DNA from: Xanthobacteraceae bacterium
GTDB lineage: Bacteria; Pseudomonadota; Alphaproteobacteria; Rhizobiales; Xanthobacteraceae
DNA length: 64,000 nt
Assembly (NCBI GenBank): GCA_019750915.1
Contig: JAIENY010000004.1
Span: forward strand, 173,073-237,072
Direction of reading: 5' to 3'
The notes below the pieces were generated by a model. That model worked only from the letters and a program-made list of their open reading frames with translations, was not told the origin of the DNA and ran no database searches. A program made the position numbers and the translations under genes. Numbering within the stretch: position 1 is the first letter of the stretch; each line of letters starts with the position of its first letter. This document shows, piece by piece, positions 48,883-62,888 of this stretch.

Positions 48883-49107
48883 ATGAAAAAGCCGCTCACG
48901 CTTGCAGACGAAGAACCGCGGAAGATCATGCGCGCAGATCGGGCACCTTCCGAAGGTTTCACCTTGGTCGTCGATGGTCACTACAAAAATGAATATCCAG
49001 ACGAACAGGCCGCGCAGGCCGCCGGAGCGGGACTGCTCGGCCGCTATCCTATGCTGCTGATCGAAATTTACGATGCCGGGACACAGACGCGATCCAAACT
49101 TTCGTAA
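48883..49107 (+). CDS. Hypothetical protein, 74 aa
   Basis: A short ORF from ATG 48883 (AGGA 6 nt upstream) with a compact pattern: GFTLVVDGHYKNEYPDEQAA then LLGRYPMLLIEIYDA. It looks like a small alpha/beta domain. The longer open frame starting at 48466 is rejected because its first 139 residues lack protein-like composition. Function unknown. It is the last recognisable chromosomal gene before the tRNA remnant. Confidence 0.55.
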   Translation: MKKPLTLADEEPRKIMRADRAPSEGFTLVVDGHYKNEYPDEQAAQAAGAGLLGRYPMLLIEIYDAGTQTRSKLS

Positions 49108-49311
49108 GCTGGCATCTTCGATTCATCGACCGGAAACCCGCCGCCATCTATTTCCGCGGGACTTGGCTGCATCGATGATCGGACACAAATCACCGGCCAC
49201 CAGCCGTAACGATCATTCGGATCATTCAGCCTGAAACAGCCCGATGATGCCAGTCTTCAAGGCGACTTCGTTGCGACGAAACGCCTGCGAATCGCTCATG
49301 ATTTGAGTTGA

Positions 49312-49360
49312 TGGTCGGAGTGGCAGGATTTGAACCTGCGACCCCTGCGTCCCGAACGCA
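49312..49360 (-). tRNA. 3' fragment of tRNA-Pro(CGG), probable attachment site
   Basis: On the minus strand this reads from the anticodon loop TTCGGGA (anticodon CGG) through the variable region, T-arm GCAGGTTCAAATCCTGC and acceptor strand CACTCCG to ACCA. The 5' half is not a tRNA: 12 nt instead of 19 lie between an acceptor-like GGAGTG (about 49373-49379) and the anticodon stem, whose first base pair is broken. This is what an integration into the 3' half of a tRNA gene leaves on one side. The intact tRNA would be expected at the far end of the element. Confidence 0.65.
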
Positions 49361-49416
49361 CCGACCAGACCACCACTCCCAGCACTATCAGCGACTTAGC
49401 ACTACTAAGCACAACC

Positions 49417-49442
49417 CGAGACTCCCGGAAAATCGGGTCTCG
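49417..49442. repeat. Imperfect hairpin near the island end
   Basis: CGAGA and CCCG pair with CGGG and TCTCG around a GAAAAT loop with a 2-nt bulge. It lies 60 nt inside the presumed island end. It may be a terminator or a recombinase/IHF-type site; no further support. Confidence 0.3.
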
Positions 49443-49543
49443 AGAGCCCCTGCGTGCAGAATGCGTGCAAAATCGGATCATGGGGGCCGGTGCCCTCATT
49501 CCGCAGGGCACGCGTCGACGTATCGCTTCTGTGGGGTCAGGTC

Positions 49544-50122
49544 ATGACTGCGCTGGAGCTTCGGGAATGCCTGGACGCCCTCCCCATGGACATTCGGCGG
49601 GAGCTCGATGAGATTCGAGAGATCGGCCGCGGTCCCTTCGGCCGCGCTCAAACCCAGCAGATCGTCGACCATCACCTAGTCCTGCTGCTTCGGCTCCGGC
49701 ACGAGTACCATGCCACCCACGCCGACCTGGTCGAGGTGCTCGGCCTTTACGGCATCACCGGACCGGACGGCGCCGCGCTGACTGCAGCCACGCTGTCGTC
49801 GGCGATCAGCCGGGCCCGCGCCCGGGCCGATGTCCGCTCCCGCTCCTCCATGCGCCGCGCCCGGACTGCGCTCCCTGCTCGTACCGACACCCCCTCCTCC
49901 GTATCCAGGCTCCATCGCCGGCATGCCGATGCGGGCGATCCGGAGCCCGACCTCATCTTTGCGAGCCGAGCCTCGCCGCCGCGGACCGCCGCGCCGAGCG
50001 ATATCGACCCGGTCTTCGGCACGCAGGCGTCCCCTTCCGGCCAAGAGGCCCCCGAACTCCGCCGCTCCGACCACAAGGAGCGTCTGATCGACCTTCTCGC
50101 TCAAGCATCCATGGAGGACTAG
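49544..50122 (+). CDS. Mobile-element protein of unknown function
   Basis: A 192-aa ORF with GGGGTCAGG 3 nt before ATG 49544. The N-terminal half is helical and contains HATHADLVEVLGLYGI...LTAATLSSAISRARARA, the kind of HTH-like segment seen in small mobilisation or partition accessory proteins. The C-terminal half is Pro/Ser/Arg-rich and probably disordered. It is directly followed (0 nt) by the ParA-like gene, so the two are coupled. Function unknown. Confidence 0.6.
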   Translation: MTALELRECLDALPMDIRRELDEIREIGRGPFGRAQTQQIVDHHLVLLLRLRHEYHATHADLVEVLGLYGITGPDGAALTAATLSSAISRARARADVRSRSSMRRARTALPARTDTPSSVSRLHRRHADAGDPEPDLIFASRASPPRTAAPSDIDPVFGTQASPSGQEAPELRRSDHKERLIDLLAQASMED

Positions 50123-51004
50123 ATGACCGACACCACGATCGCCTACGCCAAAATTGCCGCCCCCAAGACGCATCCCGCTTCCGTCCCCGACGGATTTCTT
50201 CCCGCCTATCGCTTCATCGAGTTCTGCTCGGTCGCAAGCCACGTCGGCAAGTCCACGCTCGCGGACTTCACTGCGCAGCTGCTCCCCCAGTTCGGCATCC
50301 CCGTGAAGCACGTGCGGATCGAGTCCAAGGCGGCTCGCTCGCGGCACGCCGACATCGTCCAGATCGACACGGAGAATTTCGCAGCGGCGGCCCGCCTCCC
50401 CGGTGCGGAAGCGGCCGTGCTTCGGCCGCTCTTCGAGATCATCGAGGCAGCAGCTCTGGACGAGGCGCGTCCGGTGATCGTTCTGGACTGGGGCGGCGGC
50501 ATCTCGGCGCTCCGCGCCAAGATCTATGCGGCGACGCAATTCGGCGACCAGCTTTCGGAGCTGGGCATGCGCGGCCTCTCCGTGGTGATGACGACGAACC
50601 TGACCGACCGAATGGCTCAGGCGGGCGAACTGATCGAACAGACCCAGACGGTCGTGCCAGGGATCGACGTCGCGCTGCTGCTTAACCGCCGGAACGGTTC
50701 CTTCACCTTCGTGGACGGCACCGAGGAGAAGCGGGTCTTTCAGGGTCTCCTTAAGGCGGCCAAGAACCTGCCGATCATCAAGATCCCGGCGGTCGCCGGC
50801 GAGAGCTGGCAGGCCTGCCAGGCTGCCGGTCTGACCATGCAGGAGGTGGTCGACATGAAGGCGGCCGCGCTCAGGCAACGGTTCGGCAGCGAGAACCGCT
50901 ATCTGGTATCGGCCTTTCAGATGCACGTGGCGGCGTTCTGGAGAGCCGCCGAGACCGAAATGCTGCGGGTTATGGCGGGCACCGATGCGGACCCGACGCG
51001 ATAG
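50123..51004 (+). CDS. ParA/MinD-like P-loop ATPase
   Basis: A 293-aa protein with a deviant Walker A SVASHVGKST (Lys43, about residues 36-45). A Walker B-like hydrophobic strand ends in VIVLDWGGG, and a conserved DVALLLNRRNGS-like guanine/adenine-recognition strand follows. It resembles ParA/TraL-type ATPases that act in partition or transfer of mobile DNA, but the first signature lysine of ParA is absent. It is the second gene of the island's first operon. Confidence 0.6.
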   Translation: MTDTTIAYAKIAAPKTHPASVPDGFLPAYRFIEFCSVASHVGKSTLADFTAQLLPQFGIPVKHVRIESKAARSRHADIVQIDTENFAAAARLPGAEAAVLRPLFEIIEAAALDEARPVIVLDWGGGISALRAKIYAATQFGDQLSELGMRGLSVVMTTNLTDRMAQAGELIEQTQTVVPGIDVALLLNRRNGSFTFVDGTEEKRVFQGLLKAAKNLPIIKIPAVAGESWQACQAAGLTMQEVVDMKAAALRQRFGSENRYLVSAFQMHVAAFWRAAETEMLRVMAGTDADPTR

Positions 51005-51263
51005 CTTCCTGAAGCGCCTGGCCGCGATAGAATCCCAGGCGCCGACACTGCGGCGCCAGGCCGAAGAGCGGATCCGCGGCCACTACCGCCTCCATCGCCG
51101 CCCGCCGCACGCCGCGGTGACCAGCCTGCTTCCGCGGCGGCGCGTCTACGCACTGATCTTCCTGTGCGAACTCGAGCATCGGCTCGGGCTTACGCCGCTT
51201 CTGCTGCGCCTTGGTGCGCTCCGTCGTCGTGCTGCGGCCGTGCGCGACCGGCTTCACAGATAG
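50985..51263 (+). CDS. Small arginine-rich protein
   Basis: A 92-aa ORF overlapping the end of the ParA-like gene by 20 nt and abutting the recombinase gene. It is very basic (Arg-rich) with a helical central part (VYALIFLCELEHRLGLTPLLLRLGALRRRAAAV). The tight spacing supports it; the biased composition makes a chance frame in GC-rich DNA possible. No family recognised. Confidence 0.4.
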   Translation: MRTRRDSFLKRLAAIESQAPTLRRQAEERIRGHYRLHRRPPHAAVTSLLPRRRVYALIFLCELEHRLGLTPLLLRLGALRRRAAAVRDRLHR

Positions 51264-52322
51264 GTGAACATGTTAAGGTCGAAAGGTTCTATGATGCCGA
51301 CGCAGTCTCCCCGCACCAGGAAGGACTACGCACGTCGCTGCCGACAGCTCGCGAAGGCTGCGCAACGCGAACTCGCGAAGGCTACGGGGCAGCGGGCGGA
51401 CACCATCGACCTGACGCCAGCCATGCTCGTCGACTTCGTCATCAGCAAGAAAAGCGACTATCTTGCAAATTCCTGGCGCGTCGTCCGCAGCGCCGTGATT
51501 GGCACCTTGATGAAGACCGCGCCTCTCGTCGACGAGACCGTCGCCAAGGAAATCGAGACCGCAATCGAGCGGCTCAAGCAGGAGAAACCGGCTCCCGAGA
51601 AGGAAAAGCAGCCAGCGACGTCGCGCACCAAGGACAAGTCGCCGACCGAGAAGGACCTGACCCGGATCAGGCACGCGGCGTTGGCCAAGCAGACGCAGAG
51701 CGCGACCGATCTGGTACAATACCTGAAGGCAAGCCTGTCTACTGGCTTGAGACCCTGCGAATGGCCTCGCGCTCGCTTTGGCAAGTCCACTCGCGACGGT
51801 TATCGCTGGATGCTCGTCATCGAAAATGCCAAGGCCACAAACGGCCGTGCCAACGGATCGATCCGGACCTTGTATTGGGAAGAACTGGCGCCGGAAGTCG
51901 TGCAGGACATCCTCACCTGGATCGCGAGGGCGCAGGACGGCGATTACGATCGCCGCCTCAACACGATCGGGCATCAGCTGTGGGAAATTACGCGGGAACT
52001 ATGGCCTCGCCGCAAGGAATGGCCGACCCTGTACTCGGCCCGCCACGTCGCCATCGCCGGCTGGAAGGCGTTCTACGTGCGCAATGGTCAAGGCCCTGCC
52101 GAACGGCTGGAGGCCTTGGCGGTCGTCGCCGCGCTCTGTGGGCACGGAAGCGACGAAACGGCGAGCAAGCATTACGCCCGTGCCAATGCGGCTTCCGGCA
52201 AGAGCCCGGTGCCGGCGGCCGACCCCGCAGAGGTTCAGAACGTCCGACGGGTCATCAAGCTGGATTGGCTGGAAAGCCTGCGGGAGGCAAAGGCCAACAA
52301 ACAAGCACGACCGCCGGGCTAG
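51264..52322 (+). CDS. Tyrosine recombinase-like protein
   Basis: A protein of about 352 aa (GTG 51264; ATG 51270 or 51291 are alternatives) with an N-terminal SAM-like DNA-binding half and a C-terminal catalytic half. It has Arg163 in TGLRPCEW, Arg260-His261 in YSARHVA, His294 in CGHGSDETA and the presumed nucleophile Tyr304 in SKHYA. The first histidine of the usual HxLRH box is replaced by tyrosine. A Lys/Glu-rich linker joins the halves (about residues 100-132). It is probably the integrase, or an accessory recombinase, of the island whose end is the tRNA-Pro fragment 2 kb away. Confidence 0.75.
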   Translation: MNMLRSKGSMMPTQSPRTRKDYARRCRQLAKAAQRELAKATGQRADTIDLTPAMLVDFVISKKSDYLANSWRVVRSAVIGTLMKTAPLVDETVAKEIETAIERLKQEKPAPEKEKQPATSRTKDKSPTEKDLTRIRHAALAKQTQSATDLVQYLKASLSTGLRPCEWPRARFGKSTRDGYRWMLVIENAKATNGRANGSIRTLYWEELAPEVVQDILTWIARAQDGDYDRRLNTIGHQLWEITRELWPRRKEWPTLYSARHVAIAGWKAFYVRNGQGPAERLEALAVVAALCGHGSDETASKHYARANAASGKSPVPAADPAEVQNVRRVIKLDWLESLREAKANKQARPPG

Positions 52323-52333
52323 TGGGCCAGGGT

Positions 52334-52454
52334 TCAATTCTTCAGGGTCACGCCTTCGCAGTGCGCCTTGTGCGGATAGAGGAATACGATGCCGCGATCC
52401 TTGAGCGGCGCGCACCGTTTCGTAGGTCCAGCCCGCAGCAGGCATCGCGATCAT
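52334..52454 (-). pseudogene. Remnant of an XRE regulator related to the one at 52773
   Basis: Minus-strand translation ends LKDRGIVFLYPHKAHCEGVTLKN, parallel to LERHGVVFLYGGKNHGKGVALKD at the end of the XRE gene at 52773. Upstream a TYETVRAA stretch continues the similarity in another frame, indicating a frameshift. The HTH part is gone. It shows that a second copy of the same regulator type once stood here. Confidence 0.6.
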
Positions 52455-52772
52455 AAACTGTCGCGAAAGCCTCGGACCGGTAATAATTCAGAGCCAGCGC
52501 AAGTCCAACACTTGGCGAACTAGGAGTCCACGCTGCTGCTTCCTCAGCCTCGTGAAGTCGACGTTCGAAGCGCGAGGCTGGATGCTCGCAGAAGCACGCC
52601 AGTTTGTGAGGCATGCCTACGCGCCGCCGCGGTGCATTCACGCCGACGAGCCGATGATCGACTTAAACTGACGCAAGCCGATCCCGACGAGGTCGCGCGT
52701 GAGGCAGGTCATCGATTTGCACTGGATCGAGAGGCTAATCGAATGCGCTAAGCCGAGCCCCGACGACGGCGT
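52455..52772. other. Non-coding stretch between XRE remnant and XRE gene
   Basis: A 318-nt stretch with no convincing frame; probably eroded DNA from the older copy of the module. Confidence 0.35.
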
Positions 52773-53030
52773 TCAGTCCTTGAGCGCAACTCCTTTTCCA
52801 TGATTCTTGCCCCCATAAAGAAACACGACGCCATGTCGCTCGAGAGCGTCGCGCATCCGCCTATACGTCGCGATCTTCAGCGGATTGACCGGGATTTCCT
52901 CGTCGGCCTCCAGTCGCGACACGGTGCGGCGATCGACGCCGATCTCGTGCGCGAGATCTAGCTGCTCCATCCCGACCAGCGCACGGCCGGCCCTGATCAT
53001 GCGCCCGGAAGGCAATTTGTCGACGGCCAT
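52773..53030 (-). CDS. XRE-family regulator of module A
   Basis: A regulator of about 85 aa from ATG 53030 (GGAG 6 nt upstream; ATG 53075 is in frame). The HTH is RAGRALVGMEQLDLAHEIGVDRRTVSRLEADEE (about residues 14-46). The short tail MRDALERHGVVFLYGGKN is typical of stand-alone XRE regulators in alphaproteobacteria. It diverges from the GIY-YIG/AAA-M41/exonuclease operon, and a perfect 34-bp palindrome lies in between, so it is the obvious candidate repressor. Confidence 0.85.
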   Translation of the reverse strand: MAVDKLPSGRMIRAGRALVGMEQLDLAHEIGVDRRTVSRLEADEEIPVNPLKIATYRRMRDALERHGVVFLYGGKNHGKGVALKD

Positions 53031-53096
53031 CGCAGGCTCCGAATCGGTATCGATTAACCATACACCGGAGCGCATCGAGCGCGACAGTGCCGGCCC

Positions 53097-53124
53097 TTGT
53101 TTAATGCGTCATATGGGATATATA
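53097..53124 (+). promoter_or_regulatory. Candidate promoter of the module A operon
   Basis: TTGTTT (53097-53102) and TATATA (53119-53124) are separated by 16 nt. Transcription would begin near 53131, at or next to the ATG, so the mRNA may be leaderless; no ribosome site is visible. The -10 box is the exact centre of the palindrome. Confidence 0.5.
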
Positions 53125-53138
53125 TCCCATATGACGCA
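53105..53138. promoter_or_regulatory. Perfect 34-bp palindrome, probable operator
   Basis: The half-site TGCGTCATATGGGATAT (53105-53121) is followed directly by its exact reverse complement (53122-53138), with no spacer. It covers the presumed -10 box and the ATG at 53131. Such symmetry fits a dimeric or tetrameric XRE repressor site; in RNA it could also form a 5' hairpin. Confidence 0.8.
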
Positions 53139-54123
53139 CATCAAATCCGAGACCTGCAGGTTGACCCAATCCGACCTCATCGGCGCTTCCATAAGCTCTC
53201 CCGGGCGCGGCTTCACGGCCGCAACCGTGTTCATCGATGGCACCGCGAGCGGGATGCGGCTGGTCAAATCGAGCGGTTCGAGATTGTCCATCCTCGTACT
53301 GCCGTTCGCCGAGCTTGCGCGCCTCAAGGAGCGTCTGTCGCCCTGGGACTACGTAGTCTACGTGATCGACGACCCCTCACTCGACAACGGCCAGAAGACC
53401 TATATCGGTCACGGCGACGGCGAGCGGAAGTTTGGAGATCGGCTCGGCAACGCTATCAGTGCAACCACACTGATCTATGTCATCATCGGCGCCGGCGACA
53501 CCTTCGACAAAGTCACGTCGCCCTACGTGGAAGCCAGGCTGATCGGCATCTGCACCGATCTCAATATCCCGCTCGCCAATTCTGGACGCCCCTTCGGCCG
53601 AGGTCTTGGCATCATAGATGATCTCGAACAGCTGGTCGGCCACGCCGAGACGCTTCTCTCGGTCGCTGGCTTCACGCGGATCGAGATGGCGCGTCGAAAT
53701 CCGCCTGCATTGCGCCAGCGGCTCTCGGTGACCTCGGACCGCGATGAACTGGTCGCAATGACCGAACAGGAGCAAGGCTTCGTTCCTCAGAATGGCCTAG
53801 CGTACCGACTTGATTGTCGTGATTTGCACGCCGTCGGCTACGCTTGGAACGATCGCTTCTACGTGATGGCAGGCTCCGACTATGCACGGCGCACGCGCAG
53901 CGATCTGTCCTACGATCATCAGCGACGCCGTGACTTGCTGAAGGCCGAGAAGTGGGTCGTCTCGGGCACCGGCATGCGGGACAAGATGGCGCTGAAGGTC
54001 GGCTTCCACTGCCGCAGCGGGGCGTTCGCCGCCAAGCTGCTGTCCGGCGAACACATCGACGAGAGCAGCTGGCTCGCCGTCGAGACCACGGCGGCGGCGC
54101 CTACCGGCGAGGCGCCCGAATGA
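53131..54123 (+). CDS. GIY-YIG-like nuclease with C-terminal DUF4357
   Basis: A protein of about 330 aa from ATG 53131. A GIY-YIG-like core spans about residues 74-190: VYV (76-78) and YIG (91-93) stand for the two halves of the motif, with Arg104 in GDRL as the expected catalytic arginine. A DUF4357-like domain (about residues 255-320, FYVMAGSDYARRTRSDL...WLAV) closes the protein. GIY-YIG domains cut DNA or RNA; DUF4357 often accompanies restriction-type nucleases. It is first in an operon and overlaps the AAA/M41 gene (ATGA). Open frame continues upstream to 52885 only by overlapping the XRE gene in antisense. Confidence 0.7.
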   Translation: MTHIKSETCRLTQSDLIGASISSPGRGFTAATVFIDGTASGMRLVKSSGSRLSILVLPFAELARLKERLSPWDYVVYVIDDPSLDNGQKTYIGHGDGERKFGDRLGNAISATTLIYVIIGAGDTFDKVTSPYVEARLIGICTDLNIPLANSGRPFGRGLGIIDDLEQLVGHAETLLSVAGFTRIEMARRNPPALRQRLSVTSDRDELVAMTEQEQGFVPQNGLAYRLDCRDLHAVGYAWNDRFYVMAGSDYARRTRSDLSYDHQRRRDLLKAEKWVVSGTGMRDKMALKVGFHCRSGAFAAKLLSGEHIDESSWLAVETTAAAPTGEAPE

Positions 54124-56225
54124 ACCTGCGTGCCCTTGCCACGTCGACCAGGCCCCTGCACGAAGTGTTCGTCGACCATGCTCGCCGTGGCGCGGGGTTT
54201 TCGCGGCTGCCGCGGCCCATCCTGGACGAGGACGACGAACTCGTCTCCGATGACAGCGGCAATCCCCCTCCGCCCGTAAGGTCTTGCGCTCCCGAGGTCG
54301 TCACGGTTGCCGTCCTCCTTGGCCGTGCATTCGAGACCTCGCGCGACGTGCTCGCCGCGATGCTGGACCCGGACGCCGTCATCGTCATCCAGGTGCCCTA
54401 CCCCGATCTGGTGAAGCCGGTGCGGCGCTTCTTGCGACTTCTGCTCGCGAGCGATGCGCCCCTGATCGACGGCGACGACCTCGACGACCGTAGCCACGTG
54501 ACGAGATCGGACAACTCAGTCGTGGTCTTCATGGAGCAGACCAAGTCAAAGTCGTCCCCCGAAGGGGACGACGAAGCCGTCGCCATTGCTATGCGCTTCC
54601 GCTGCGCGATCATCGGCATCGTGACACCGCTTGGCCGATTGCCGAAGACCTTGGTCCGGCTCGCCGATCATCGCGTCGTCGTCCCACCGATCGACGCCAC
54701 GGTCGTGGCCGACGTGATCGAAGCGGTCACCGCTGCGAGGCCCGCGGTCGACACCTCGATGGCGAGCCGCGTCGGCATCAACGACCTTGCGATCGCGGTG
54801 CGCGACGATATCGGCGCCGAACGGTCGCTCGAACGGCTGCGCCGCCTCGTGGAGCCCGAGCTCACATACGACGTACCGCCGCTCTCCGAGCTTTCCGGCC
54901 TGGGCGAGGCGAAGACGTACTGTTTGGAGGTGGTCGAGTCCCTACGGGCGTATCTCGCAGGGACGCGTCCTTGGAGTGAATGTCCGCACGGCCTGCTGGT
55001 GTCCGGGCCTCCCGGCACCGGGAAGACCTCGCTGATGCGCTCGCTGGCCCGCGAATTGCCCGGCGTTCACTTCATCGCCACGAGCTACGCTCAATGGCAG
55101 TCACATAAAACTGGCCATCTCGGGGACGTGACGTCATGCATTCGTGCAACGTTTACGGAGGCGTATCAACGTCGCCCCGCCATCATCTACATCGATGAGT
55201 GTGATGCCATACCTGCGCGAGGGTCGATCTCAAAAGACAGCTCTTGGTGGAATTCGATCGTCGCGACGCTGCTCGAGTGCATGCAGGGTTTCGATCAAAT
55301 CGAGGGCGTATTCGTATGTGCCTCCTGCAACGATCCCGATGGCCTCGATCCCGCGCTTATCCGCGCCGGGCGCCTCGATCACCATGTCAGGGTCGAGCTG
55401 CCCGACATCGCAGGGTTGATGGGTATCTTCCGGACGCACCTTCGCTCCGATTGCGCGGGCGCCGACCTGCGCGAAGCCGCGCTCGTCGCCCGCGGTCACA
55501 CCGGCGCCGACGTCGAAAAGTGGGTCCGCATGGCTCGCCAGGCGGCGCGCAAGACCGGAAGGAACTTGACCGTGGAGGATCTCGTTCGCGTGGTCCGCGG
55601 TGGCAAGCCCGACTTTCCCAGAGATCTCCGCCTCTGCATCGCCTACCACGAAGCCGGACACGCGATCTCGCACCTGGTGCTCGGCACCGCCATGCCGAAA
55701 TCGCTCTCGGTCGGCGGCGACGGTGGCTTTGCGCAGAGCGCGCCGGGACGGCTTCAGCTCCCCACGCGCGACTATCTTGAGAGGCTCCTCATGACGATGT
55801 TGGCCGGGCGGGCAGCAGAGCAACTGAAGTTCGGCGAGGCGACGACCGGCGCCGGCGGAACGTCCACGGATTGCGATCTGGTCCGCGCGACAAGCTTGGC
55901 GCTGCGGATCGAAAGTGCATATGGATACGGACAGACAGGTCTCGTGACGCTCAGCGAGGATCAAGTCACCGACAGCCATCTGCTCATGAACGGGCCGCTC
56001 CGCTCGGCCACCAACGAAACACTGAAACGCTCCTACGACAAATCGCTGGCTCTCCTCAAGCAGAACGACCGGTCACTGGACGCACTCGCGGAAGCCCTGT
56101 TCGTGGCCGGCTATCTCGATCAGGCTGAGATCGCCGCGGTCATCGCGACGAACCCCCTGGTCGTGGCGGCGCCCGCCCACGTCCGCGAGGCGGCCTCTCC
56201 CTGTCCTGACCAGCCCGCCAGCTAG
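54120..56225 (+). CDS. Soluble FtsH-like AAA+ ATPase/M41 metalloprotease
   Basis: A protein of about 701 aa. The N-terminal 260 residues are unlike known domains and contain no membrane helix. The AAA+ module follows: Walker A GPPGTGKT (about 296-303), Walker B IIYIDECDAI, and the LDPALIRAGRLDH arginine-finger region. The C-terminal peptidase M41 domain has zinc motif HEAGH (about 510-514) and GAGGTSTDCDL supplying the third ligand. FtsH proteins are normally membrane-anchored; this one is not, so it is a dedicated cytosolic protease. It is coupled to the GIY-YIG gene upstream and 28 nt before the exonuclease gene. Role unknown; a triggered protease or effector-activating enzyme in defence is plausible. 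Confidence 0.82.
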   Translation: MNLRALATSTRPLHEVFVDHARRGAGFSRLPRPILDEDDELVSDDSGNPPPPVRSCAPEVVTVAVLLGRAFETSRDVLAAMLDPDAVIVIQVPYPDLVKPVRRFLRLLLASDAPLIDGDDLDDRSHVTRSDNSVVVFMEQTKSKSSPEGDDEAVAIAMRFRCAIIGIVTPLGRLPKTLVRLADHRVVVPPIDATVVADVIEAVTAARPAVDTSMASRVGINDLAIAVRDDIGAERSLERLRRLVEPELTYDVPPLSELSGLGEAKTYCLEVVESLRAYLAGTRPWSECPHGLLVSGPPGTGKTSLMRSLARELPGVHFIATSYAQWQSHKTGHLGDVTSCIRATFTEAYQRRPAIIYIDECDAIPARGSISKDSSWWNSIVATLLECMQGFDQIEGVFVCASCNDPDGLDPALIRAGRLDHHVRVELPDIAGLMGIFRTHLRSDCAGADLREAALVARGHTGADVEKWVRMARQAARKTGRNLTVEDLVRVVRGGKPDFPRDLRLCIAYHEAGHAISHLVLGTAMPKSLSVGGDGGFAQSAPGRLQLPTRDYLERLLMTMLAGRAAEQLKFGEATTGAGGTSTDCDLVRATSLALRIESAYGYGQTGLVTLSEDQVTDSHLLMNGPLRSATNETLKRSYDKSLALLKQNDRSLDALAEALFVAGYLDQAEIAAVIATNPLVVAAPAHVREAASPCPDQPAS

Positions 56226-56253
56226 AGAGCAAGTTCGTTCGAATGTAAGTGGA

Positions 56254-57147
56254 ATGACCATGCAGAGCGAAATCAACGAAGCCTTGGCAAGGCAACTCGA
56301 GGCGAGCGGACAATACAGGGTGCTGCGCCGCATCATGCCGGCCACGCCAGGCTTCCGTTCCGAAATCGGCGCGAAGATCGGCATTGTGCTGGACGTCGAG
56401 ACCACGGGTCTCGATACCGTTCGCGACGAGGTCATCGAACTGGCCATGGTCAAGTTTGCCTATTCGGCCGACGATCGGATTTTGGGAGTGATCGATGTCT
56501 TTCAGGCTCTGCAGGAGCCGTCGTTCCCGATCACCCCCGAGATCACGGCGCTGACCCGGATCACTAACGAAATTCTTGCCGGCCGAGAAATCGAACCGCT
56601 GGCAGTCGATCGTTTCACAGCCGACGCCAACATCATCGTGGCGCACAACTCCGCGTTCGATCGAAAATTCGCTGAGAGATTTTGGCCGGCCTTCGTGCAC
56701 AAACCATGGGCTTGCTCGTTCAGCGGCATCACCTGGAAGCAGCATGGTTTCGCAAGCGGCAAGCTGGAGCACCTCTTGGCCTCATGCGGACTTTTCTATG
56801 ATGCCCACCGGGCAGCCGACGATTGCCACGCCTTGCTCGCATTGATGGACCAGGAATTGCCGCCATCTAACGCTACCGTCCTCGCCTGCCTTCTCGAACG
56901 CGCTCGGCGGAGGACTGTCCGGGTCTGGGCGCAGCATGCACCTTTCGAACTAAAGGATGTTCTGAAGCAGCGCGCCTATCGTTGGAATGACGGAACGGAT
57001 GGCCGGCCGAAGTCATGGTACCTGGACGTCGAGGAAGAGGCCCTGGACGCCGAATTGCGTTTCTTAGAGAACGAGATTTACCAGCGCGAAGTCGACGTTC
57101 ATCGACAGGTATTCACGGCGCGAGACCGATACTCGAACCGAGCATAA
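56254..57147 (+). CDS. DEDDh-family 3'-5' exonuclease
   Basis: A 297-aa protein with a DnaQ-like exonuclease domain at about residues 42-200: Asp47 and Glu49 in DVETTG, Asp136 in HNSAFD, and His185/Asp190 in HRAADD complete the DEDDh set. The remaining C-terminal 95 residues (containing WAQHAPFELKDVLKQRAYRWND) are seen in exonucleases paired with a TerD/MAEBL-like tail, but I cannot name the domain. It degrades DNA or RNA from 3' ends. It is last in the module A operon. Confidence 0.85.
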   Translation: MTMQSEINEALARQLEASGQYRVLRRIMPATPGFRSEIGAKIGIVLDVETTGLDTVRDEVIELAMVKFAYSADDRILGVIDVFQALQEPSFPITPEITALTRITNEILAGREIEPLAVDRFTADANIIVAHNSAFDRKFAERFWPAFVHKPWACSFSGITWKQHGFASGKLEHLLASCGLFYDAHRAADDCHALLALMDQELPPSNATVLACLLERARRRTVRVWAQHAPFELKDVLKQRAYRWNDGTDGRPKSWYLDVEEEALDAELRFLENEIYQREVDVHRQVFTARDRYSNRA

Positions 57148-57586: not shown

Positions 57587-58483
57587 TCATGCCTTCGGCC
57601 CATTGAAATCCTTCAACAGTGCGGCGGCACCAGCTTCCATCTGCTTTTCCATCTCCGGACGCATGAACCTGTAGATCAACGGAAAAATCAGCGGATTTGC
57701 GACGCGCCGGCCGAAGATTGCATCTTGAAATTCGCGCGAGCGGCCTTCGCACTCAGCCTCCGAGCAAGCCCCGGATTTCACCTCGTCAAACAGTCGCTCG
57801 GCATCGCTCTTCAACGTGTCGCCCGCGTCCGCGGCATCCGATTGCCGGAACTGTTCCCGAACCACCCATAGTAACGCGGGAGCGACGGTCGCCGCGATGA
57901 CAACAAAATCAAGCATGGTCAATTTCATGGCGACCGAACCTACGATCAGCCCCAGAAACACCACGACCGCACAACAGATCAACAGATTGCGATAAGACCT
58001 GCGTAATGACATGTCGTACCAAAGATTGGTGCGCTGACACACCACTCGCGCCAGCGACAGCGGCGCCCCTTCTGGAATGGGCCCGTACCATCCTCGAAGC
58101 TTGGCTTCGTCGCCTGTCCAATTTCTAAAGGCGGCATCGATCTTCTCCTCATCGACCCGCTTTCCAGCCGAAAAGCTATTCCATGACATCTTGAGAACGC
58201 CGCAGTCGAACTCTTCGCTAACTCTGGCCGCCATCTTGAGCTTGCCGCGTAGTGACCGATCGAGCCACAGCACGTCGAGGGCGGTGACGATCAAACCATA
58301 AAGAGCAACATATGGGCGAGCGGGCGAATACAACGTCCCTAGAATGGCTCCCGCCACGGGAAACACGACGGTCGCCAGGAACTGGGTTACCTGCAGCGCC
58401 GTGGCGTCGGCGTAGATCTTTTGCCGCGCCTTCAACACGCGCTGAAAAGCTGGCAGGTCCTGATCCTTGGCGATGGTATTCAT
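57587..58483 (-). CDS. S-4TM-family putative pore-forming CBASS effector
   Basis: A 298-aa membrane protein with two pairs of hydrophobic helices (about residues 30-75 and 165-210) separated by a soluble domain, and a soluble C-terminal part. This is the layout of the S-4TM effector family. In CBASS such effectors bind the cyclic nucleotide made by the CD-NTase and permeabilise the inner membrane, killing the infected cell. It starts 15 nt after the CD-NTase gene and is the last gene of the operon. Confidence 0.8.
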   Translation of the reverse strand: MNTIAKDQDLPAFQRVLKARQKIYADATALQVTQFLATVVFPVAGAILGTLYSPARPYVALYGLIVTALDVLWLDRSLRGKLKMAARVSEEFDCGVLKMSWNSFSAGKRVDEEKIDAAFRNWTGDEAKLRGWYGPIPEGAPLSLARVVCQRTNLWYDMSLRRSYRNLLICCAVVVFLGLIVGSVAMKLTMLDFVVIAATVAPALLWVVREQFRQSDAADAGDTLKSDAERLFDEVKSGACSEAECEGRSREFQDAIFGRRVANPLIFPLIYRFMRPEMEKQMEAGAAALLKDFNGPKA

Positions 58484-58498
58484 CTAATCAAACCCACC

Positions 58499-59941
58499 CT
58501 ATTCGATGACGACGTAGAACGGCTCGCTCTTCGCCACAAGGACGTCGTCGCTTCGACGAATGACGAAGGCCTCGGCCATGTGGACACCCCGATACTGGAG
58601 GTCTTCCCAGTGTCCGCTAGATCTGTTCTCCGGGTAAAATCCGCCACGTCCCGCCCCCTTCGCCATCGCCACCGCACCCGTGTTGGTGATACGCCACTGG
58701 ACCTGAAAGTCGACGGGAACGGGGCTGCCGCCGTTGACGGAGGCGCGGAAGTAAAGCCCGCCGCGTGCAGGCAGCACTTCTCCCGCCCGCGCTGGACGCC
58801 CCTGGCTTGCGCCATTTGGGCGCCATTCGGCGGTCACCGAGGCCACCACCAACTCAGGAAGCTGCCGCCACGGCGGCTGCTTAATATGCGGTGGCCTGCT
58901 GAAGCCCGCCGGCAAAACCGAAAGGCCGAAGTTCTTCACGACGTCAACGATCTCGTTCAGATGCGCGGCAGTCGACGACATGAGGCTGCGGATTCTCGCT
59001 GCGCCCTCAGGCGCGCTGTCGGCAGCGGCCTTAACGACATCCCCCTTGCCGAATTCATCGCCGAAAACGCGCTGCCATGCGGTAATACTTTCCTGCCGAC
59101 CCTCCGTGTCGTAAGCCTCGTCGATCCAGCCACGATAACGGTGGATGACGTTCCGGAAATTCATGTACTGATCCTGAGTTTCCCACAACGTCGCGAAATC
59201 CTCGGTCGAGAGCTTCGGGTTGCGGACTTCCGGCTTGTACGGCCGCTGTTGGAGCCAGTCGTCCAGTCGTCCCATCAAGGTCCGGAGCGTCGTGGGGACG
59301 TCCGTGAAATCTGGGCTATCCTTCTCCATCCATTCGATCCTGTAGCCCACCAAAGTCGTCAACAGCACCGAGGGACAGGTGAAGGTCTCCTTGATGTCGC
59401 GCAGATACTTCAGCAGCCGCGTCACCTTCCGGAACGAGTTGGAACCTGAGTAGGCATTTCGCTCCTTCAGCCAGGTCGTGTACTCAACAGGCTCGCTCCG
59501 CTCGAAACCACCCTTGCGGTTGCAGACCTCGATGCTGCCTTCCCACTGGCGGCCCACGACGCAGGGGGCCAGGTCGATCCTGCGGTCGCCGGCGTAGGTG
59601 ATCGTCACGCAGTAGTCCCAGACCTTGGTCTTGTCGGCATAGGTCCCGCTCGCCGCGAACACGCGCCCGAGTTCCTCTACGTAATCGGCGGCCGTCCATC
59701 CCTCCACCGGATCGACCATCACCAGCAGGTCGGCGTCGAACTCGGCACCATCGACCGGCCGGATGATCGTGCGGTGAGCCCAGGATCCCTGCTCTTCGAA
59801 GCCCCTCTTGCGGGGCTTCCAATCGGATCCGCGGATGAACGTCTTCAACGCGTCGATACTGTCCTCGAGCAGATCGATGCGGGTCTGGTTGAGGTTCACG
59901 GTGTCCTTGAGAAAATCGTCGAAGAGACTAACCAACTTCAC
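58499..59941 (-). CDS. CBASS CD-NTase (cGAS-like nucleotidyltransferase) with AGS-C domain
   Basis: A 480-aa protein starting at GTG 59941. The nucleotidyltransferase motif is complete: GS at residues 52-53, Asp69-x-Asp71 in EFDADLLV, and the third aspartate Asp123 in RRIDLAP. The helical OAS-like half follows. The C-terminal about 110 residues form an AGS-C sensor domain (VQWRITNTG, RGVHMAEAFVIRR). On phage infection it would make a cyclic di- or trinucleotide signal. Its start overlaps the stop of the DUF2235 gene (GTGA). No Cap2/Cap3 genes are present, so it is a type I-like CBASS. Confidence 0.9.
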   Translation of the reverse strand: MKLVSLFDDFLKDTVNLNQTRIDLLEDSIDALKTFIRGSDWKPRKRGFEEQGSWAHRTIIRPVDGAEFDADLLVMVDPVEGWTAADYVEELGRVFAASGTYADKTKVWDYCVTITYAGDRRIDLAPCVVGRQWEGSIEVCNRKGGFERSEPVEYTTWLKERNAYSGSNSFRKVTRLLKYLRDIKETFTCPSVLLTTLVGYRIEWMEKDSPDFTDVPTTLRTLMGRLDDWLQQRPYKPEVRNPKLSTEDFATLWETQDQYMNFRNVIHRYRGWIDEAYDTEGRQESITAWQRVFGDEFGKGDVVKAAADSAPEGAARIRSLMSSTAAHLNEIVDVVKNFGLSVLPAGFSRPPHIKQPPWRQLPELVVASVTAEWRPNGASQGRPARAGEVLPARGGLYFRASVNGGSPVPVDFQVQWRITNTGAVAMAKGAGRGGFYPENRSSGHWEDLQYRGVHMAEAFVIRRSDDVLVAKSEPFYVVIE

Positions 59942-60852
59942 GTGGCAATTCCTTTCCGGTACTCATCACTTGTCGTGCTCTGCTTTGGGGCGGCGTCGGA
60001 TCCGGAGTAATACTTCGTGAGCTTTTCGTGGTCGGACAGGTTCGTCGGCCGGTACGGCGCGTGGCTGTAAAAATGCGGGACGCCGTTGGGAGCATCGAAG
60101 CGCTTATAGACGGACGAATGCAGGATGCCGCAGGGCTGGACCTTGCGGTGCCCTTCCGTCCACTTGAAGCGTCCGCCGAGGTACCCGGGCTCGCGTGCGT
60201 CGTGCTGCGGCCCTAGCGGGTCGGGGTTGAGTTGGAGGTAGCGTTCGTCGACCTTGATGCCGTTGCCGGTCGGCGTCTTGCTGTCGGGCAGGTTCACCGC
60301 GGCGTGCACCATCCAGCCAAGCGAGATGTCGGAGAGCCGCGCCTCGTTTTCGGGGTAGCTGCCGCCGATATCGGAATGGTTCCCGGCGAACCACACCTGT
60401 TGCAGCCAGTCGGGGTATTCGTCGGGGCGTTCGGGGCCCTTGTTGTGGGTGCCGCCCCAGATCACCCGGCCGAAGTCCGCGCGGTTCTCATCGATCGACA
60501 GCGCGTGCCGCGCGTACCAGACCTTGTTGTTGAGGTGCAGGTCGTAGAACTTCATCTTCGGCGAGGCGAGGTGCCACCGCGTCCACCATGGTCCCGGCAG
60601 GCCGGCGGCGAACTTGACGTGCGTGGCCGCGTAGCCGGTCGCCGCAGCGAGTAGGCCGAACCCGGCGAGCGTCAGGAAGGTCGCGAGGAACGGGAAGAGA
60701 AGGAGCGACTGCGCGAAGCTGATCGTAGCAAGCGCCAACGTTGCCCCGCCAAGGAGCGCCGCCGATAGCAGATAGCTTCCGAGCGACGCGACGGTGTCGA
60801 ACACACCGACGAAGAACGGCACCGTGTTGGGCTCGCCGTTGTCGTCGGCCCC
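59938..60852 (-). pseudogene. C-terminal part of DUF2235 hydrolase after an amber codon
   Basis: It continues the 60853 gene in the same frame after a TAG: GADDNGEPNTVPFFVGVFDTVASLGS, a typical DUF2235 catalytic-aspartate region, then two hydrophobic helices and FAGNHSDIGGSY, which carries the catalytic histidine. The frame stays open to 59938. Unless the TAG is read through, this half is made only by internal initiation (first ATG-type start at 60822). It lacks the nucleophile serine, so alone it should be inactive. Confidence 0.75.
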
Positions 60853-61407
60853 CTACTTCTGACGGAAATTCGCCGCCAGCGCCTTGCGCTGCTCAACGTA
60901 GGCCGTGTCCTTCGGCGAGCTGACGAACTGGTAGACCTTCTTCACGGCCTCCTTGGCGATGGCCGTCGAGGTGCCGACGTCGCGCCGCAGCGGCTTGCCA
61001 TCCGGCATCCGCGTGGGAACGCCGCAGAGCGAGAGCACCGCTGCGAGGCACCTGACGGTGTAGGCGCCGCGGCTGAAGCCGAACAGAAAGATGCGGTCGC
61101 CAGGCTGGTAGACCCGCACGATCCAAGCGTAGCAGTCGATGATGTTCGTGGTGATGCCGAGGCCCGTCGCCTGGCTGGCTACGTTGTGCAGCCATCGCCA
61201 GGCGCGCGTAACGAAGAAGGCACCGTGTGGCGGCTGGGAGCCGAGGCCGGCATCGTAGAAGGCGATCTGCTCGCCGGCGTTGATGTTGGTGTCCGGCCCG
61301 CAGCGCGTGGCGCGGAACATCTTGTAGATGTTGGACCGGTTCTCGTCGGGGGTGAGACCACCTGCCTGACCAGTGCCGTCTGAAAATACCAGGATGTTCT
61401 TCGACAT
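60853..61407 (-). CDS. DUF2235 alpha/beta hydrolase, N-terminal part ending at an in-frame TAG
   Basis: It starts at ATG 61407 (GAGGA 4 nt upstream) with SKNILVFSDGTGQ, the conserved DUF2235 opening, and carries the nucleophile elbow FGFSRGAYTVR. It stops at TAG 60853-60855 where the family usually continues with an aromatic or polar residue. Upstream in-frame codons to 61578 are not needed. DUF2235 proteins include Tle-type phospholipases. Here it is the first gene of the CBASS operon, so a second membrane-attacking effector is plausible. Confidence 0.8.
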   Translation of the reverse strand: MSKNILVFSDGTGQAGGLTPDENRSNIYKMFRATRCGPDTNINAGEQIAFYDAGLGSQPPHGAFFVTRAWRWLHNVASQATGLGITTNIIDCYAWIVRVYQPGDRIFLFGFSRGAYTVRCLAAVLSLCGVPTRMPDGKPLRRDVGTSTAIAKEAVKKVYQFVSSPKDTAYVEQRKALAANFRQK

Positions 61408-61556
61408 GGTGTCCTCGTCGCGTTCGTTGCGATCGAGGAAGCGGCGGTCTTGGCCGTCGGGGTAGCTGGCTCCAGCCATTGCCGCGCGCGCATGAAGAAT
61501 CGCTACGTTTCGATCTATCCAAATTGCTCCGTCCGGTAAGGACGGCGCTAACCATA

Positions 61557-61600
61557 CAGATATATCTGACGCTTGCACTTGTCAATATGTGCGCTATAAC
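61557..61600. promoter_or_regulatory. Overlapping divergent promoters with a 12-bp palindrome
   Basis: Plus strand: TTGCAC (61573-61578), 16 nt, TATAAC (61595-61600), driving the XRE/ImmA pair. Minus strand: TTGACA (complement of 61580-61585), 17 nt, TATCTG (complement of 61557-61562), driving the CBASS operon. The perfect palindrome CAGATATATCTG (61557-61568) overlaps the minus-strand -10 box and is a candidate repressor site. Confidence 0.55.
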
Positions 61601-61655
61601 TTCGTCCAACTAAATCTAACGATCTCGAAAAACGAGGTCTTTTGAGAGGCTTAGG

Positions 61656-61979
61656 ATGTCATTAGCCACCAAATTGAAGGAGTTACGGGTCCGTCAGAAG
61701 CAGTCGCTGCAGGATGTCGCCGACGCGGTCGGCGCCTCGAAGACCCACATCTGGGACCTGGAGAGGGGCCAAAGCAGCAATCCGTCGGTCGATCTGCTGA
61801 CCAAGCTCGCCGGCCACTTCCGGGTGAGGATTGCCGATCTTGTCGGCGAAAACCCGAACGCCACCGACGAGGACGAAAAGCACGTTGCCTTGTTTCGCGA
61901 GCTCAAGCAGTTATCTGACCCCGACCTCGAGACGATCCGAATACTAATGCAGCGGTTGAAGGGGCCCGAACGGAAGTAG
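61656..61979 (+). CDS. XRE-family repressor, CapH-like
   Basis: A 107-aa protein with an HTH_XRE domain (about residues 6-60, LQDVADAVGASKTHIWDLERG) and a short helical C-terminal part (LFRELKQLSDPDLETIRILMQRL). It diverges from the CBASS operon and is 6 nt before an ImmA/IrrE-type peptidase gene. Known CBASS loci carry the same pair, CapH repressor and CapP peptidase, where CapP cuts CapH on DNA damage and raises CBASS expression. That assignment here rests on order and domain type. Confidence 0.82.
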   Translation: MSLATKLKELRVRQKQSLQDVADAVGASKTHIWDLERGQSSNPSVDLLTKLAGHFRVRIADLVGENPNATDEDEKHVALFRELKQLSDPDLETIRILMQRLKGPERK

Positions 61980-61985
61980 CTCGCG

Positions 61986-62888
61986 ATGCAGATCACCCGC
62001 ATGGACCTGGCCGACAAGGGATCCCCCGAAGGGATCGTGATGGCCATCCTAAAGGCTGAGCCGAACCTGCCGATCCCCGTCCCGATCGAGGAGTTGTGTC
62101 GCCGGCTCGACATCATCGAGATCCAGGCGTTGACGACTGCGGGCTTCGAGGGCGGCCTGCTGACAGACCGCGAGCGGAGCAACGGGATCATCCTGGTCAA
62201 GAACGGAGTGTCGCCGCAGCGCCGCCGGTTCACGCTGGGCCATGAGCTCGGGCATTTCCTGATGCCCTCGCATTTGCCGGACAGCGAAGGCCGCTTCCTT
62301 TGCTCGGAAATGGACATGTTGCTTCTCAATCCGAAGGAAGGCGACCGCCGCGCGAAGATGGAAGTCGAGGCAAACCGCTTCTCGTCCCTGATCCTGATGC
62401 CGCCGCCCGCGTTGCGGGGCGAGTTCGGCAGGAAGTCGGTGCCAAGCCTCGAACATATGCTTGCGCTCTCGAAGAAGTTCGACGTCAGCAAGGATGCGAT
62501 GGCCAGGACCTATGCGGAACATCACCCGGAGCCGATTGCCTTCGTGGTGGTCCGCGATGGCAAGGTGCTGCGGAACTACCGCAACAAGATCAGATTTCCT
62601 TACATCACCGCGCTCCGCGGCAAGGCCGTACCCGAAAGGTCATTGTTCTATCGCAAAGGGCTTCAGATAGGTGTGCCAAGCGACGTGGATGCGCGTCTCC
62701 CAGACAACTGGATCTACGTCGAGCGCGGCCGCCAGGCTCCGAGGGTGAGCGAGCAGGTTTATCTGCAGGCCAACGGCTTCGCGCTGATTATGCTCTGGTA
62801 CGAGCCAGCGGACGATCCGGACTACGACGAAGATGGCGAGCGGACGGCGAAGGAACGGTTGAAGCACCGGCAGTCGCGGTTCACTTGA
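61986..62888 (+). CDS. ImmA/IrrE-family metallopeptidase, CapP-like
   Basis: A 300-aa protein with a zinc peptidase domain: HELGH (about residues 80-84) and the downstream glutamate in EVEANRFSS as third ligand. A C-terminal about 120-residue sensor-like domain (VVVRDGKVLRNYRNKIRFPY onward) follows. Such peptidases cleave a partner XRE repressor when triggered, for example by single-stranded DNA. The 6-nt gap to the XRE gene supports partnership and de-repression of the divergent CBASS operon. Confidence 0.85.
   Translation: MQITRMDLADKGSPEGIVMAILKAEPNLPIPVPIEELCRRLDIIEIQALTTAGFEGGLLTDRERSNGIILVKNGVSPQRRRFTLGHELGHFLMPSHLPDSEGRFLCSEMDMLLLNPKEGDRRAKMEVEANRFSSLILMPPPALRGEFGRKSVPSLEHMLALSKKFDVSKDAMARTYAEHHPEPIAFVVVRDGKVLRNYRNKIRFPYITALRGKAVPERSLFYRKGLQIGVPSDVDARLPDNWIYVERGRQAPRVSEQVYLQANGFALIMLWYEPADDPDYDEDGERTAKERLKHRQSRFT

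What the first reader, a model, noticed from the sequence alone, without database searches (positions are those of the whole stretch)
52773..57147. Candidate new defence module: XRE regulator, GIY-YIG/DUF4357 protein, soluble AAA+/M41 protease and DEDDh exonuclease
Seen directly: three co-directional genes with 4-nt overlap and 28-nt spacing encode a GIY-YIG-like nuclease, an FtsH-like protease without membrane anchor and a 3'-5' exonuclease, under a divergent XRE gene. They lie in an island next to a CBASS. Known: nuclease plus ATPase/protease sets are common in phage defence. Inferred: the protease could sense or activate, with the two nucleases as effectors. I do not recognise this set as a named system.
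Basis: partly seen in the sequence, partly recalled or inferred. Interest (0 to 1): 0.85.

Follow-up and report, generated by a model that had tools for sequence, protein, structure and literature searches.

The report
Swappable AAA+ motor–nuclease defence cassette
Four neighbouring genes in a relative of Bradyrhizobium form a conserved cassette whose nuclease-like genes and whose AAA+ ATPase gene are both exchanged for unrelated or differently built ones in other genomes of the family; it is predicted to destroy invading virus or plasmid DNA, and would then be an undescribed bacterial immune system.

Summary
In detail: XRE (52773-53075, -), GIY-YIG-like nuclease (53131-54123), soluble AAA+/M41 protein (54120-56225) and DEDDh exonuclease (56254-57147). 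The set recurs in Bradyrhizobium with the same order, correlated divergence and related palindromes at the nuclease start. It is one version of a modular cassette: a divergent XRE; a first slot with GIY-YIG, PD-(D/E)XK-like or c5 (with or without HNH) genes, never two of these classes in 70 loci; often a small protein and a metallophosphoesterase; an AAA+ core; a last slot with DEDDh exonuclease, DUF2130 or a small protein. The core is swapped too: FtsH-type with M41 peptidase, or Lon-type AAA+ without a peptidase. Of 28 GIY sites in 391 genomes, 22 lie within 5 kb of such a core. Neighbours include restriction-modification and Argonaute genes; control regions showed only what I judge housekeeping cross-hits. 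No named system in PADLOC, NCBIfam, Pfam or my paper searches matches the set. Defence is likely but untested. Because Lon-type cores lack a peptidase, ATP-driven unfolding rather than proteolysis is probably the shared step.

The parts
52773..53075 (-). XRE-type HTH regulator, divergent from the operon (100 aa)
   Evidence: HTH_3 1.3e-5; homologue at the same place in six relatives, 60-83% identity; an XRE on the opposite strand within 5 kb in 24 of 46 FtsH-type and 7 of 24 Lon-type loci (the window's own was missed by that ORF caller, so this is a lower bound)
53105..53138 (.). Perfect 34-bp palindrome (two 17-bp arms) covering the nuclease start codon; predicted operator
   Evidence: related palindromes (CATATGGGATATAT...) in L003, L004, L005 and, degraded, L105; different repeats in L006/L007, whose XRE is the most divergent. 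With perfect arms only, L003 and L105 do not beat shuffles (24 and 26 of 100), L007 does (1 of 100)
53131..54123 (+). GIY-YIG-like nuclease with DUF4357-like C-terminal part (330 aa)
   Evidence: PADLOC PDC-S14 1e-14; conserved residues; intermediates match Pfam GIY-YIG and DUF4357 below cut-off
54120..56225 (+). Soluble FtsH-type AAA+ ATPase with M41 zinc peptidase domain and a distinct N-terminal alpha/beta domain (701 aa)
   Evidence: Pfam AAA 1.4e-26, M41 3.8e-18; FtsH_fam 181 bits vs cut-off 600; predicted model matches FtsH, E 6.7e-23
56254..57147 (+). DEDDh 3'-5' exonuclease, PRK09182 subfamily (297 aa)
   Evidence: NCBIfam 374 bits, cut-off 207; PolC-type exonuclease 2p1j at 1.2e-10; D47, E49, D136, H185, D190 read from that alignment
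49454..50122 (+). c29: first gene of accompanying recombinase-type genes (likely mobile-island gene, not part of the cassette proper)
   Evidence: homologous cluster in L105 and L007
50123..51004 (+). INTa: protein conserved beside INTb; no Pfam match
   Evidence: also in L208 and L209 without the cassette
51264..52322 (+). INTb: tyrosine-recombinase-like by reading (TGLRPCEW, ARH, CGHGSDETASKHY)
   Evidence: next to XRE in L007, L105 and the L006/L070 contig; the window protein has no integrase match, a distant relative in L211 matches Phage_integrase only weakly (0.071)

Best explanation
The four genes form one conserved cassette, an XRE gene divergent from a GIY-YIG-like nuclease gene, an AAA+/M41 gene and a DEDDh exonuclease gene, that likely works as an anti-phage or anti-plasmid system in which the ATPase is predicted to unfold proteins on invading DNA and the two nucleases would cut and degrade that DNA. 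Shown by calls: the gene set, its recurrence, the exchangeable nuclease and core slots, the palindrome and the mobile and defence-gene surroundings. Inferred: XRE represses the operon through the palindrome; on infection the AAA+ ring threads and, in the M41 version, digests a DNA-bound invader protein (or one that holds the nuclease off); GIY-YIG makes the entry cut and the exonuclease resects the 3' end.
For: Same order XRE | GIY-AAA/M41-EXO in L003, L004, L005, L006, L007. pN 0.10-0.28 against pS 0.44-0.65 between the window and six relatives for the four genes; identities correlate between genes (r 0.77-0.92, 21 non-independent pairs). 22 of 28 GIY sites within 5 kb of a core. 38 of 46 FtsH-type and 23 of 24 Lon-type loci have a co-directional nuclease-type gene or metallophosphoesterase within 5 kb; 0 of 20 control regions match any of 13 module profiles. 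GIY, PD-(D/E)XK-like and c5/HNH never share a locus in 70, as expected for interchangeable parts. Lon-type core: Lon AAA domain at 3.4e-21, match ends at 557 of 564 profile positions; no peptidase in Pfam for four members. 122 neighbour proteins match 157 PADLOC families at 1e-15, including type I and III restriction-modification and pAgo; 110 control proteins match 31, of which the 25 shown I judge housekeeping cross-hits. Carriers: recombinase-type genes, TnsA/TnsB (8 of 46 FtsH-type loci), plasmids, contigs classed as viral.
Against: No functional test. The catalytic Glu of GIY-YIG is Gln in 18 of 31 aligned rows, 12 of 15 beside Lon-type cores, so GIY may not cut in that branch; the window clade keeps Glu. 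8 of 46 FtsH-type loci and 1 of 24 Lon-type loci have no recognised co-directional partner. Of 12 class-level loci, L200-L207 (8) have none of the profiled partners within 5 kb; three of these (L201, L205, L207) are cut by a contig end. L007 on both sides and L003 upstream are flanked by what read as transporter genes. Of 10 long neighbours of other loci scanned singly, 5 had no PADLOC match at 1e-30 and one only a partial MkoA match. No GIY-YIG chain among the rows shown by Foldseek or VIA-align for the GIY model.
Confidence: 0.5

Rival explanations
1. Toxin-antitoxin-like abortive infection: the AAA+/M41 protein continually degrades or restrains the nuclease, XRE keeps expression low, and infection of the cell releases the nucleases onto host DNA.
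For: GIY and AAA genes overlap by 4 nt, as translationally coupled pairs do; XRE divergent with a strong palindrome; defence genes near relatives.
Against: The core can lack a peptidase, so degradation of the nuclease cannot be general; 20 of 70 loci have the core with no recognised first-slot gene.
Confidence: 0.2
2. Mobile-element maintenance or transposition module, like Tsy transposons (tyrosine recombinase, HTH protein, TnsF, GIY-YIG nuclease): the nucleases and ATPase serve the element's own movement or stability.
For: INTa and INTb lie directly upstream in the window, L007, L105 and the L006/L070 contig; Tsy includes a GIY-YIG nuclease that raises transposition without being essential (PMC10293859, passages read); TnsA/TnsB genes near 8 of 46 loci.
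Against: INTa/INTb-type genes also occur without GIY or core (L208, L209), while GIY sits beside AAA+ cores in many loci with no such genes; carriers differ, so the cassette looks like cargo common to many vehicles.
Confidence: 0.15
3. Accessory DNA-repair or replication-fork processing module carried by mobile elements, acting on host or element DNA rather than on invaders.
For: The DEDDh exonuclease is related to PolC and DNA polymerase exonuclease subunits; metallophosphoesterases and AAA+ proteins are common in repair (recalled).
Against: Patchy distribution (FtsH-type 39 of 391, Lon-type 49 of 391 genomes) and exchange of unrelated nucleases fit conflict systems better; restriction-modification and pAgo neighbours.
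Confidence: 0.1
4. Independent defence genes that merely cluster in islands, with no joint function.
For: GIY matches a PADLOC single-gene candidate (PDC-S14) and the metallophosphoesterase another (PDC-S10).
Against: Fixed order, 4-nt overlap, correlated divergence and mutual exclusion within one slot.
Confidence: 0.05

Closest known systems
FtsH / m-AAA and i-AAA proteases
   Same: AAA+ plus M41 zinc peptidase with conserved motifs; predicted model matches FtsH
   Different: No N-terminal membrane anchor; an alpha/beta N-terminal domain of about 250 residues instead; 181 bits against the NCBIfam FtsH cut-off of 600
ietAS defence system
   Same: AAA+ ATPase paired with a protease in defence (recalled); AAA domain similar to IetA (2e-15)
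   Different: 61.5 bits against the IteA cut-off of 510; peptidase is M41 in the same chain; nucleases are part of the operon
PADLOC candidates PDC-S14 and PDC-S10
   Same: PDC-S14 matches the GIY proteins (1e-14 for the window, 1.9e-34 for L210); PDC-S10 matches the metallophosphoesterase
   Different: Single-gene candidates by their names (S; recalled meaning); the AAA+ cores matched no PDC model
SNIPE and CMoRE (PD-T4-3), GIY-YIG defence nucleases
   Same: GIY-YIG nucleases in anti-phage defence; a predicted catalytic residue, E414, is needed in SNIPE (passages read)
   Different: SNIPE is a membrane-bound protein with DUF4041, CMoRE a single-component system; the passages seen name no AAA+/M41 partner
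Tsy transposons
   Same: Tyrosine recombinase, HTH protein and GIY-YIG nuclease together (passages read)
   Different: TnsF was not looked for; here the nuclease sits beside AAA+ cores in loci with no recombinase genes
Lon protease
   Same: AAA domain of the alternative core matches Lon chains (3.4e-21)
   Different: No room for and no match to a peptidase domain

Membership tests
FtsH | AAA+ module with Walker A/B and arginine finger | tested here: met
   Pfam AAA 1.4e-26; invariant K302, T303, D359, E360, R415, R418
FtsH | M41 HEXXH site and third ligand | tested here: met
   M41 3.8e-18; H510, E511, H514, D586 invariant in an alignment of 23
FtsH | N-terminal membrane anchor | tested here: not met
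   no N-terminal hydrophobic stretch; maximum 1.73 at 153-171 within a predicted alpha/beta domain
FtsH | NCBIfam TIGR01241 cut-off | tested here: not met
   181 bits, cut-off 600
GIY-YIG nuclease | Tyr, Y-x-G, Arg and Glu of the active site | tested here: met
   Y77, Y91, G93, R99, E134 invariant in an alignment of 24; Glu is Gln in 18 of 31 wider rows
GIY-YIG nuclease | Pfam GIY-YIG or DUF4357 score above cut-off | tested here: not met
   no match for the window protein; relatives match below cut-off
GIY-YIG nuclease | GIY-YIG fold | tested here: inconclusive
   model pLDDT 79.5; no GIY-YIG chain among the listed Foldseek or VIA-align rows
PRK09182 3'-5' exonuclease | NCBIfam cut-off and DEDDh residues | tested here: met
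   374 bits, cut-off 207; D47, E49, D136, H185, D190 in the alignment to 2p1j
ietAS | IteA model score above cut-off | tested here: not met
   61.5 bits, cut-off 510
ietAS | separate S8 protease partner | not tested
   only selected window genes were scanned
PADLOC PDC-S14 | profile match of the GIY protein | tested here: met
   1e-14, 52 bits; no curated cut-off is given
CBASS | cyclase and effector as constant partners of the cassette | tested here: not met
   homologues of the window's cyclase and effector within 5 kb at 1 of 46 FtsH-type loci (the window's own) and 0 of 24 Lon-type loci
Tsy transposon | TnsF and transposon ends | not tested
   no TnsF profile used; a direct-repeat search (13 bp or more) found none in window, L007 or L105 within the stretches searched
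Lon protease (alternative core) | Lon peptidase domain | tested here: not met
   no peptidase among Pfam matches of four members; Lon match ends at position 557 of 564

The most novel reading that the evidence does not exclude
A plug-and-play immune cassette of alphaproteobacterial mobile DNA in which two differently built protease-type AAA+ motors (FtsH-type with M41, Lon-type stripped of its peptidase) drive interchangeable endonucleases and exonucleases behind one repressor; in the Lon-type branch a GIY-YIG protein that lost its catalytic glutamate has become the sensor or adaptor, while in the window's branch it still cuts.
Probability: 0.4. Interest if true: 0.88.

Novelty: new variant of a known kind. 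Interest (0 to 1): 0.72.

Why it matters
If true, it adds an immune system family in which a soluble FtsH-like protease, and in its place a Lon-type motor without a peptidase, works with exchangeable nucleases. The natural swap of the core is a ready-made experiment on what AAA+ proteases contribute in defence: unfolding or digestion. It would also place two PADLOC candidates (PDC-S14, PDC-S10) in a common system.

Tried and rejected
GIY fold search: no PDB match at E<=0.001 and no GIY-YIG chain in the rows shown. The AAA model matches FtsH, and the N-terminal domain stays unassigned (its strand/helix order looks AAA-like to me, not tested). Direct repeats around the set: none of 13 bp or more in window, L007, L105; one 13-mer in L006, taken as chance. 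Palindromes between XRE and the first gene at other loci: 22 of 28 pairs no better than 5 or more of 100 shuffles. Phage records: no GIY match at E<=0.01, although phrog_12629 (unknown function) matches GIY at 8.9e-6 and phrog_30773 matches the AAA/M41 part at 3.7e-45; AAA matches 94 phage records, none over 80% of its length. c3 has no family match. The idea that the CBASS is part of the unit was dropped. Papers: the listings named no description of this gene set (one search found no paper; the rows shown do not hold DUF2130); passages only were seen of PMC12923530, PMC13190303, PMC11719660 and PMC10293859; a word search in the main text of Benler 2021 found none of FtsH, protease, GIY, phosphoesterase, Rhizobiales.

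Limits of counts: the 22-of-28 count used 16 of the 41 FtsH places and 33 of the 66 Lon places, typed by hand; omissions can only lower it. Of the six others, L236 has a more divergent FtsH-type core beside GIY, and L235 has such a core near its GIY site, where GIY was not called as an ORF of its own. The profiles of the partner genes were built from FtsH-type loci, so FtsH counts are partly circular. Lon-type loci: 20 of 66 places, taken from the top of the list, plus L115, L210 and L213 that came in through GIY hits and L212 through an INTb hit, so the share with GIY is biased upwards; the same holds for L004, L005, L007 among FtsH-type loci. L103 and L104 look alike by gene lengths. A4 = 122 of 364 neighbour ORFs of at least 180 aa and includes the L112 GIY-YIG gene; A5 = 110 of 111 chosen from 230 control ORFs, one 2781-aa ORF dropped. 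Families are not independent hits. ORFs were called by a GC-position heuristic.
Full report
1. The observation. All four genes are present at the stated coordinates. The GIY gene starts at 53131 and ends at 54123; the AAA gene starts at 54120 (ATGA overlap); the exonuclease gene follows after 28 nt. Family searches give HTH_3 for XRE; AAA plus Peptidase_M41; RNase_T, with PRK09182 above its cut-off, for the exonuclease, whose D47, E49, D136, H185 and D190 fit DEDDh (alignment). The GIY protein has no Pfam match of its own, but PADLOC PDC-S14 matches it (1e-14). Y77, Y91, G93, R99 and E134 are invariant in an alignment of 24, and wider homologues found with its profile carry a clear Y..Y(I/V)GETG motif and match Pfam GIY-YIG and DUF4357 below cut-off. 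I accept GIY-YIG/DUF4357-like, with fold not confirmed.

2. The window version is conserved as a set. The window's family includes Bradyrhizobium: genome G356 holds the contig length and gene set of the B. japonicum record L003. In Bradyrhizobium genomes L003 to L007 the nuclease, AAA/M41 and exonuclease genes follow one another and an XRE homologue lies divergent. L105 holds a decayed copy: one search reports one stop inside its GIY match, the AAA gene is homologous only up to residue 262, and a 30-residue stretch of the exonuclease lies on the other strand. Between the window and six relatives, nonsynonymous differences per site (0.10-0.28) are well below synonymous ones (0.44-0.65, partly saturated) for the four genes, and pairwise identities among seven loci correlate between genes (r 0.77-0.92 over 21 pairs, which are not independent; L105 enters with 263 AAA and 30 exonuclease residues). 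A perfect 34-bp palindrome (53105-53138) covers the nuclease start codon. Related palindromes sit before or at the nuclease start in L003, L004 and L005 and a degraded one in L105, while L006 and L007, whose XRE proteins are the most divergent, have different repeats. Judged by perfect arms alone, those of L003 and L105 do not beat shuffles (24 and 26 of 100), that of L007 does (1 of 100); the argument rests on the shared sequence. I read this as an XRE operator; binding is untested.

3. The wider family is modular. I searched 391 genomes of the family with the AAA/M41 alignment (39 of 391 at E<=1e-100) and fetched 40 of the 41 places. Neighbours cluster into recurring genes: a first-slot gene that is GIY-YIG, or c17 (no Pfam match; a D...ExK pattern by reading, hence PD-(D/E)XK-like), or c5 with or without an HNH gene (HNH 7.9e-5; c5 matches phrog_4652 of unknown function); then c3 (no match), a metallophosphoesterase (Metallophos 1.1e-10), the core, and a last gene that is the DEDDh exonuclease, DUF2130 (9e-76) or a small protein c20. 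In a class-wide sample 13 of 385 genomes have a match at 1e-80; of 12 loci fetched, four have partner genes and eight (three of them cut by a contig end) have none of the profiled ones.

4. The core is swapped too. In L210, L212, L213 and the plasmid locus L115 the same partners surround a different protein of 532-576 aa. Its alignment A3 matches the AAA domain of Lon proteases (3.4e-21) up to position 557 of 564, and Pfam finds no peptidase in four members. It occurs in 49 of 391 genomes at E<=1e-40; 41 of the 66 places, in 33 genomes, cover at least 430 of 564 positions. I fetched 20 more such loci. In 24 Lon-type loci, 23 have a co-directional nuclease-type gene or metallophosphoesterase within 5 kb; in 46 FtsH-type loci, 38 do. 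Across these 70 loci the first-slot classes are GIY 25, c5 alone 11, c5+HNH 5, PD-(D/E)XK-like 9, none 20, and no locus has two classes. None of 13 module profiles matches any of 20 arbitrary 19-kb regions, one from each of 20 cassette-bearing genomes.

5. Reverse test. The GIY profile finds 28 places in 23 of 391 genomes; 22 lie within 5 kb of a core, 7 FtsH-type and 15 Lon-type. A plasmid of Paracoccus alcaliphilus, from another order, has an annotated GIY-YIG gene outside the A1 family directly before an AAA gene that matches the AAA/M41 profile (9e-95) (its MUG113/T5orf172 matches are below cut-off). The plasmid of Methylorubrum extorquens CM4 has metallophosphoesterase, AAA and an annotated 3'-5' exonuclease in a row, with TIR-domain genes ending 3.4 kb before the AAA gene.

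6. Setting. The cassette rides on different vehicles: INTa and INTb genes in the window, L007, L105 and the L006/L070 contig, with c29 in the first three, which also exist without the cassette (L208, L209); TnsA/TnsB genes near 8 of 46 FtsH-type loci (domains); plasmids; and contigs classed as viral in IMG/VR with XRE, c15, metallophosphoesterase and AAA (L120, L122). Of 122 neighbour proteins with the profiled module genes left out, matches at 1e-15 cover 157 PADLOC families; the 25 shown include type I and type III restriction-modification, pAgo, Hhe/PDC-S37 and TRIP13. Of 110 control proteins, 31 families match; the 25 shown are GajB/RTasHel helicase, SspA/DndA and mads_3 models, which I judge housekeeping cross-hits from memory. 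Similar cross-hits occur in the neighbour set. This is a qualitative contrast. Ten long neighbours scanned singly: L232 type I restriction and methylation (two proteins), L082 type III methylation, L075 PDC-S37/Hhe, L224 a partial MkoA match, five without a match at 1e-30. In the window a CBASS (S_4TM, SMODS cyclase, capH, capP) starts about 440 bp past the exonuclease gene. Of other window-type loci, L007 on both sides and L003 upstream have what read as transporter genes.

7. Mechanism. Common to most loci are an AAA+ ATPase of protease type and at least one nuclease-type partner; a peptidase is not constant. The shared step is therefore most likely ATP-driven unfolding. I commit to this: XRE holds the operon low; the AAA+ ring removes (FtsH-type: digests) a protein from invading DNA or from the nuclease; the endonuclease cuts and the exonuclease degrades. 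Every step of this is inferred. A notable twist is that the GIY catalytic glutamate is glutamine in 12 of 15 Lon-associated rows but kept in all 8 window-type rows, two of which (L003, L069) are one contig. SNIPE with its predicted catalytic residue replaced (E414A) was tested for lost defence (passage read), so in the Lon branch GIY may bind rather than cut.

8. Known or new. The AAA protein is FtsH-like but not an FtsH by anchor or curated score; it is not IetA by score. PDC-S14 and PDC-S10 models match GIY and metallophosphoesterase relatives. My paper searches found no report of the set (calls listed under Tried and rejected; the library holds open-licence PMC papers only). I rate it a new variant of a known kind, ATPase-nuclease defence, with an unusually clear exchange of parts.

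Noticed in passing
59938-61578: The Tle1/DUF2235-like gene beside the CBASS lies in two ORFs matching model positions 1-125 and 188-286; it looks broken or misassembled.
   Followed up: partly
57587-62888: CBASS: S_4TM effector, SMODS cyclase with AGS_C, and capH/capP regulators, close to the end of the contig, which is the window's end.
   Followed up: no
L208:10437-14452, L209:5646-10045: INTa/INTb-type genes with a further 376- or 429-aa ORF between them, without the cassette; an undescribed-looking mobile element.
   Followed up: partly
GIY proteins beside Lon-type cores, e.g. L213:9490-10440: Catalytic Glu of GIY-YIG replaced by Gln (YLQxRL and similar) in 12 of 15.
   Followed up: partly
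L080:662-8622: One locus carries a diverged Lon-type core (2e-82), GIY, metallophosphoesterase, an FtsH-type core and the exonuclease in a row.
   Followed up: no
49001-57000: GC content is 60-67% here against 53-61% before 49 kb and 54% at 57-58 kb, as expected for acquired DNA.
   Followed up: no
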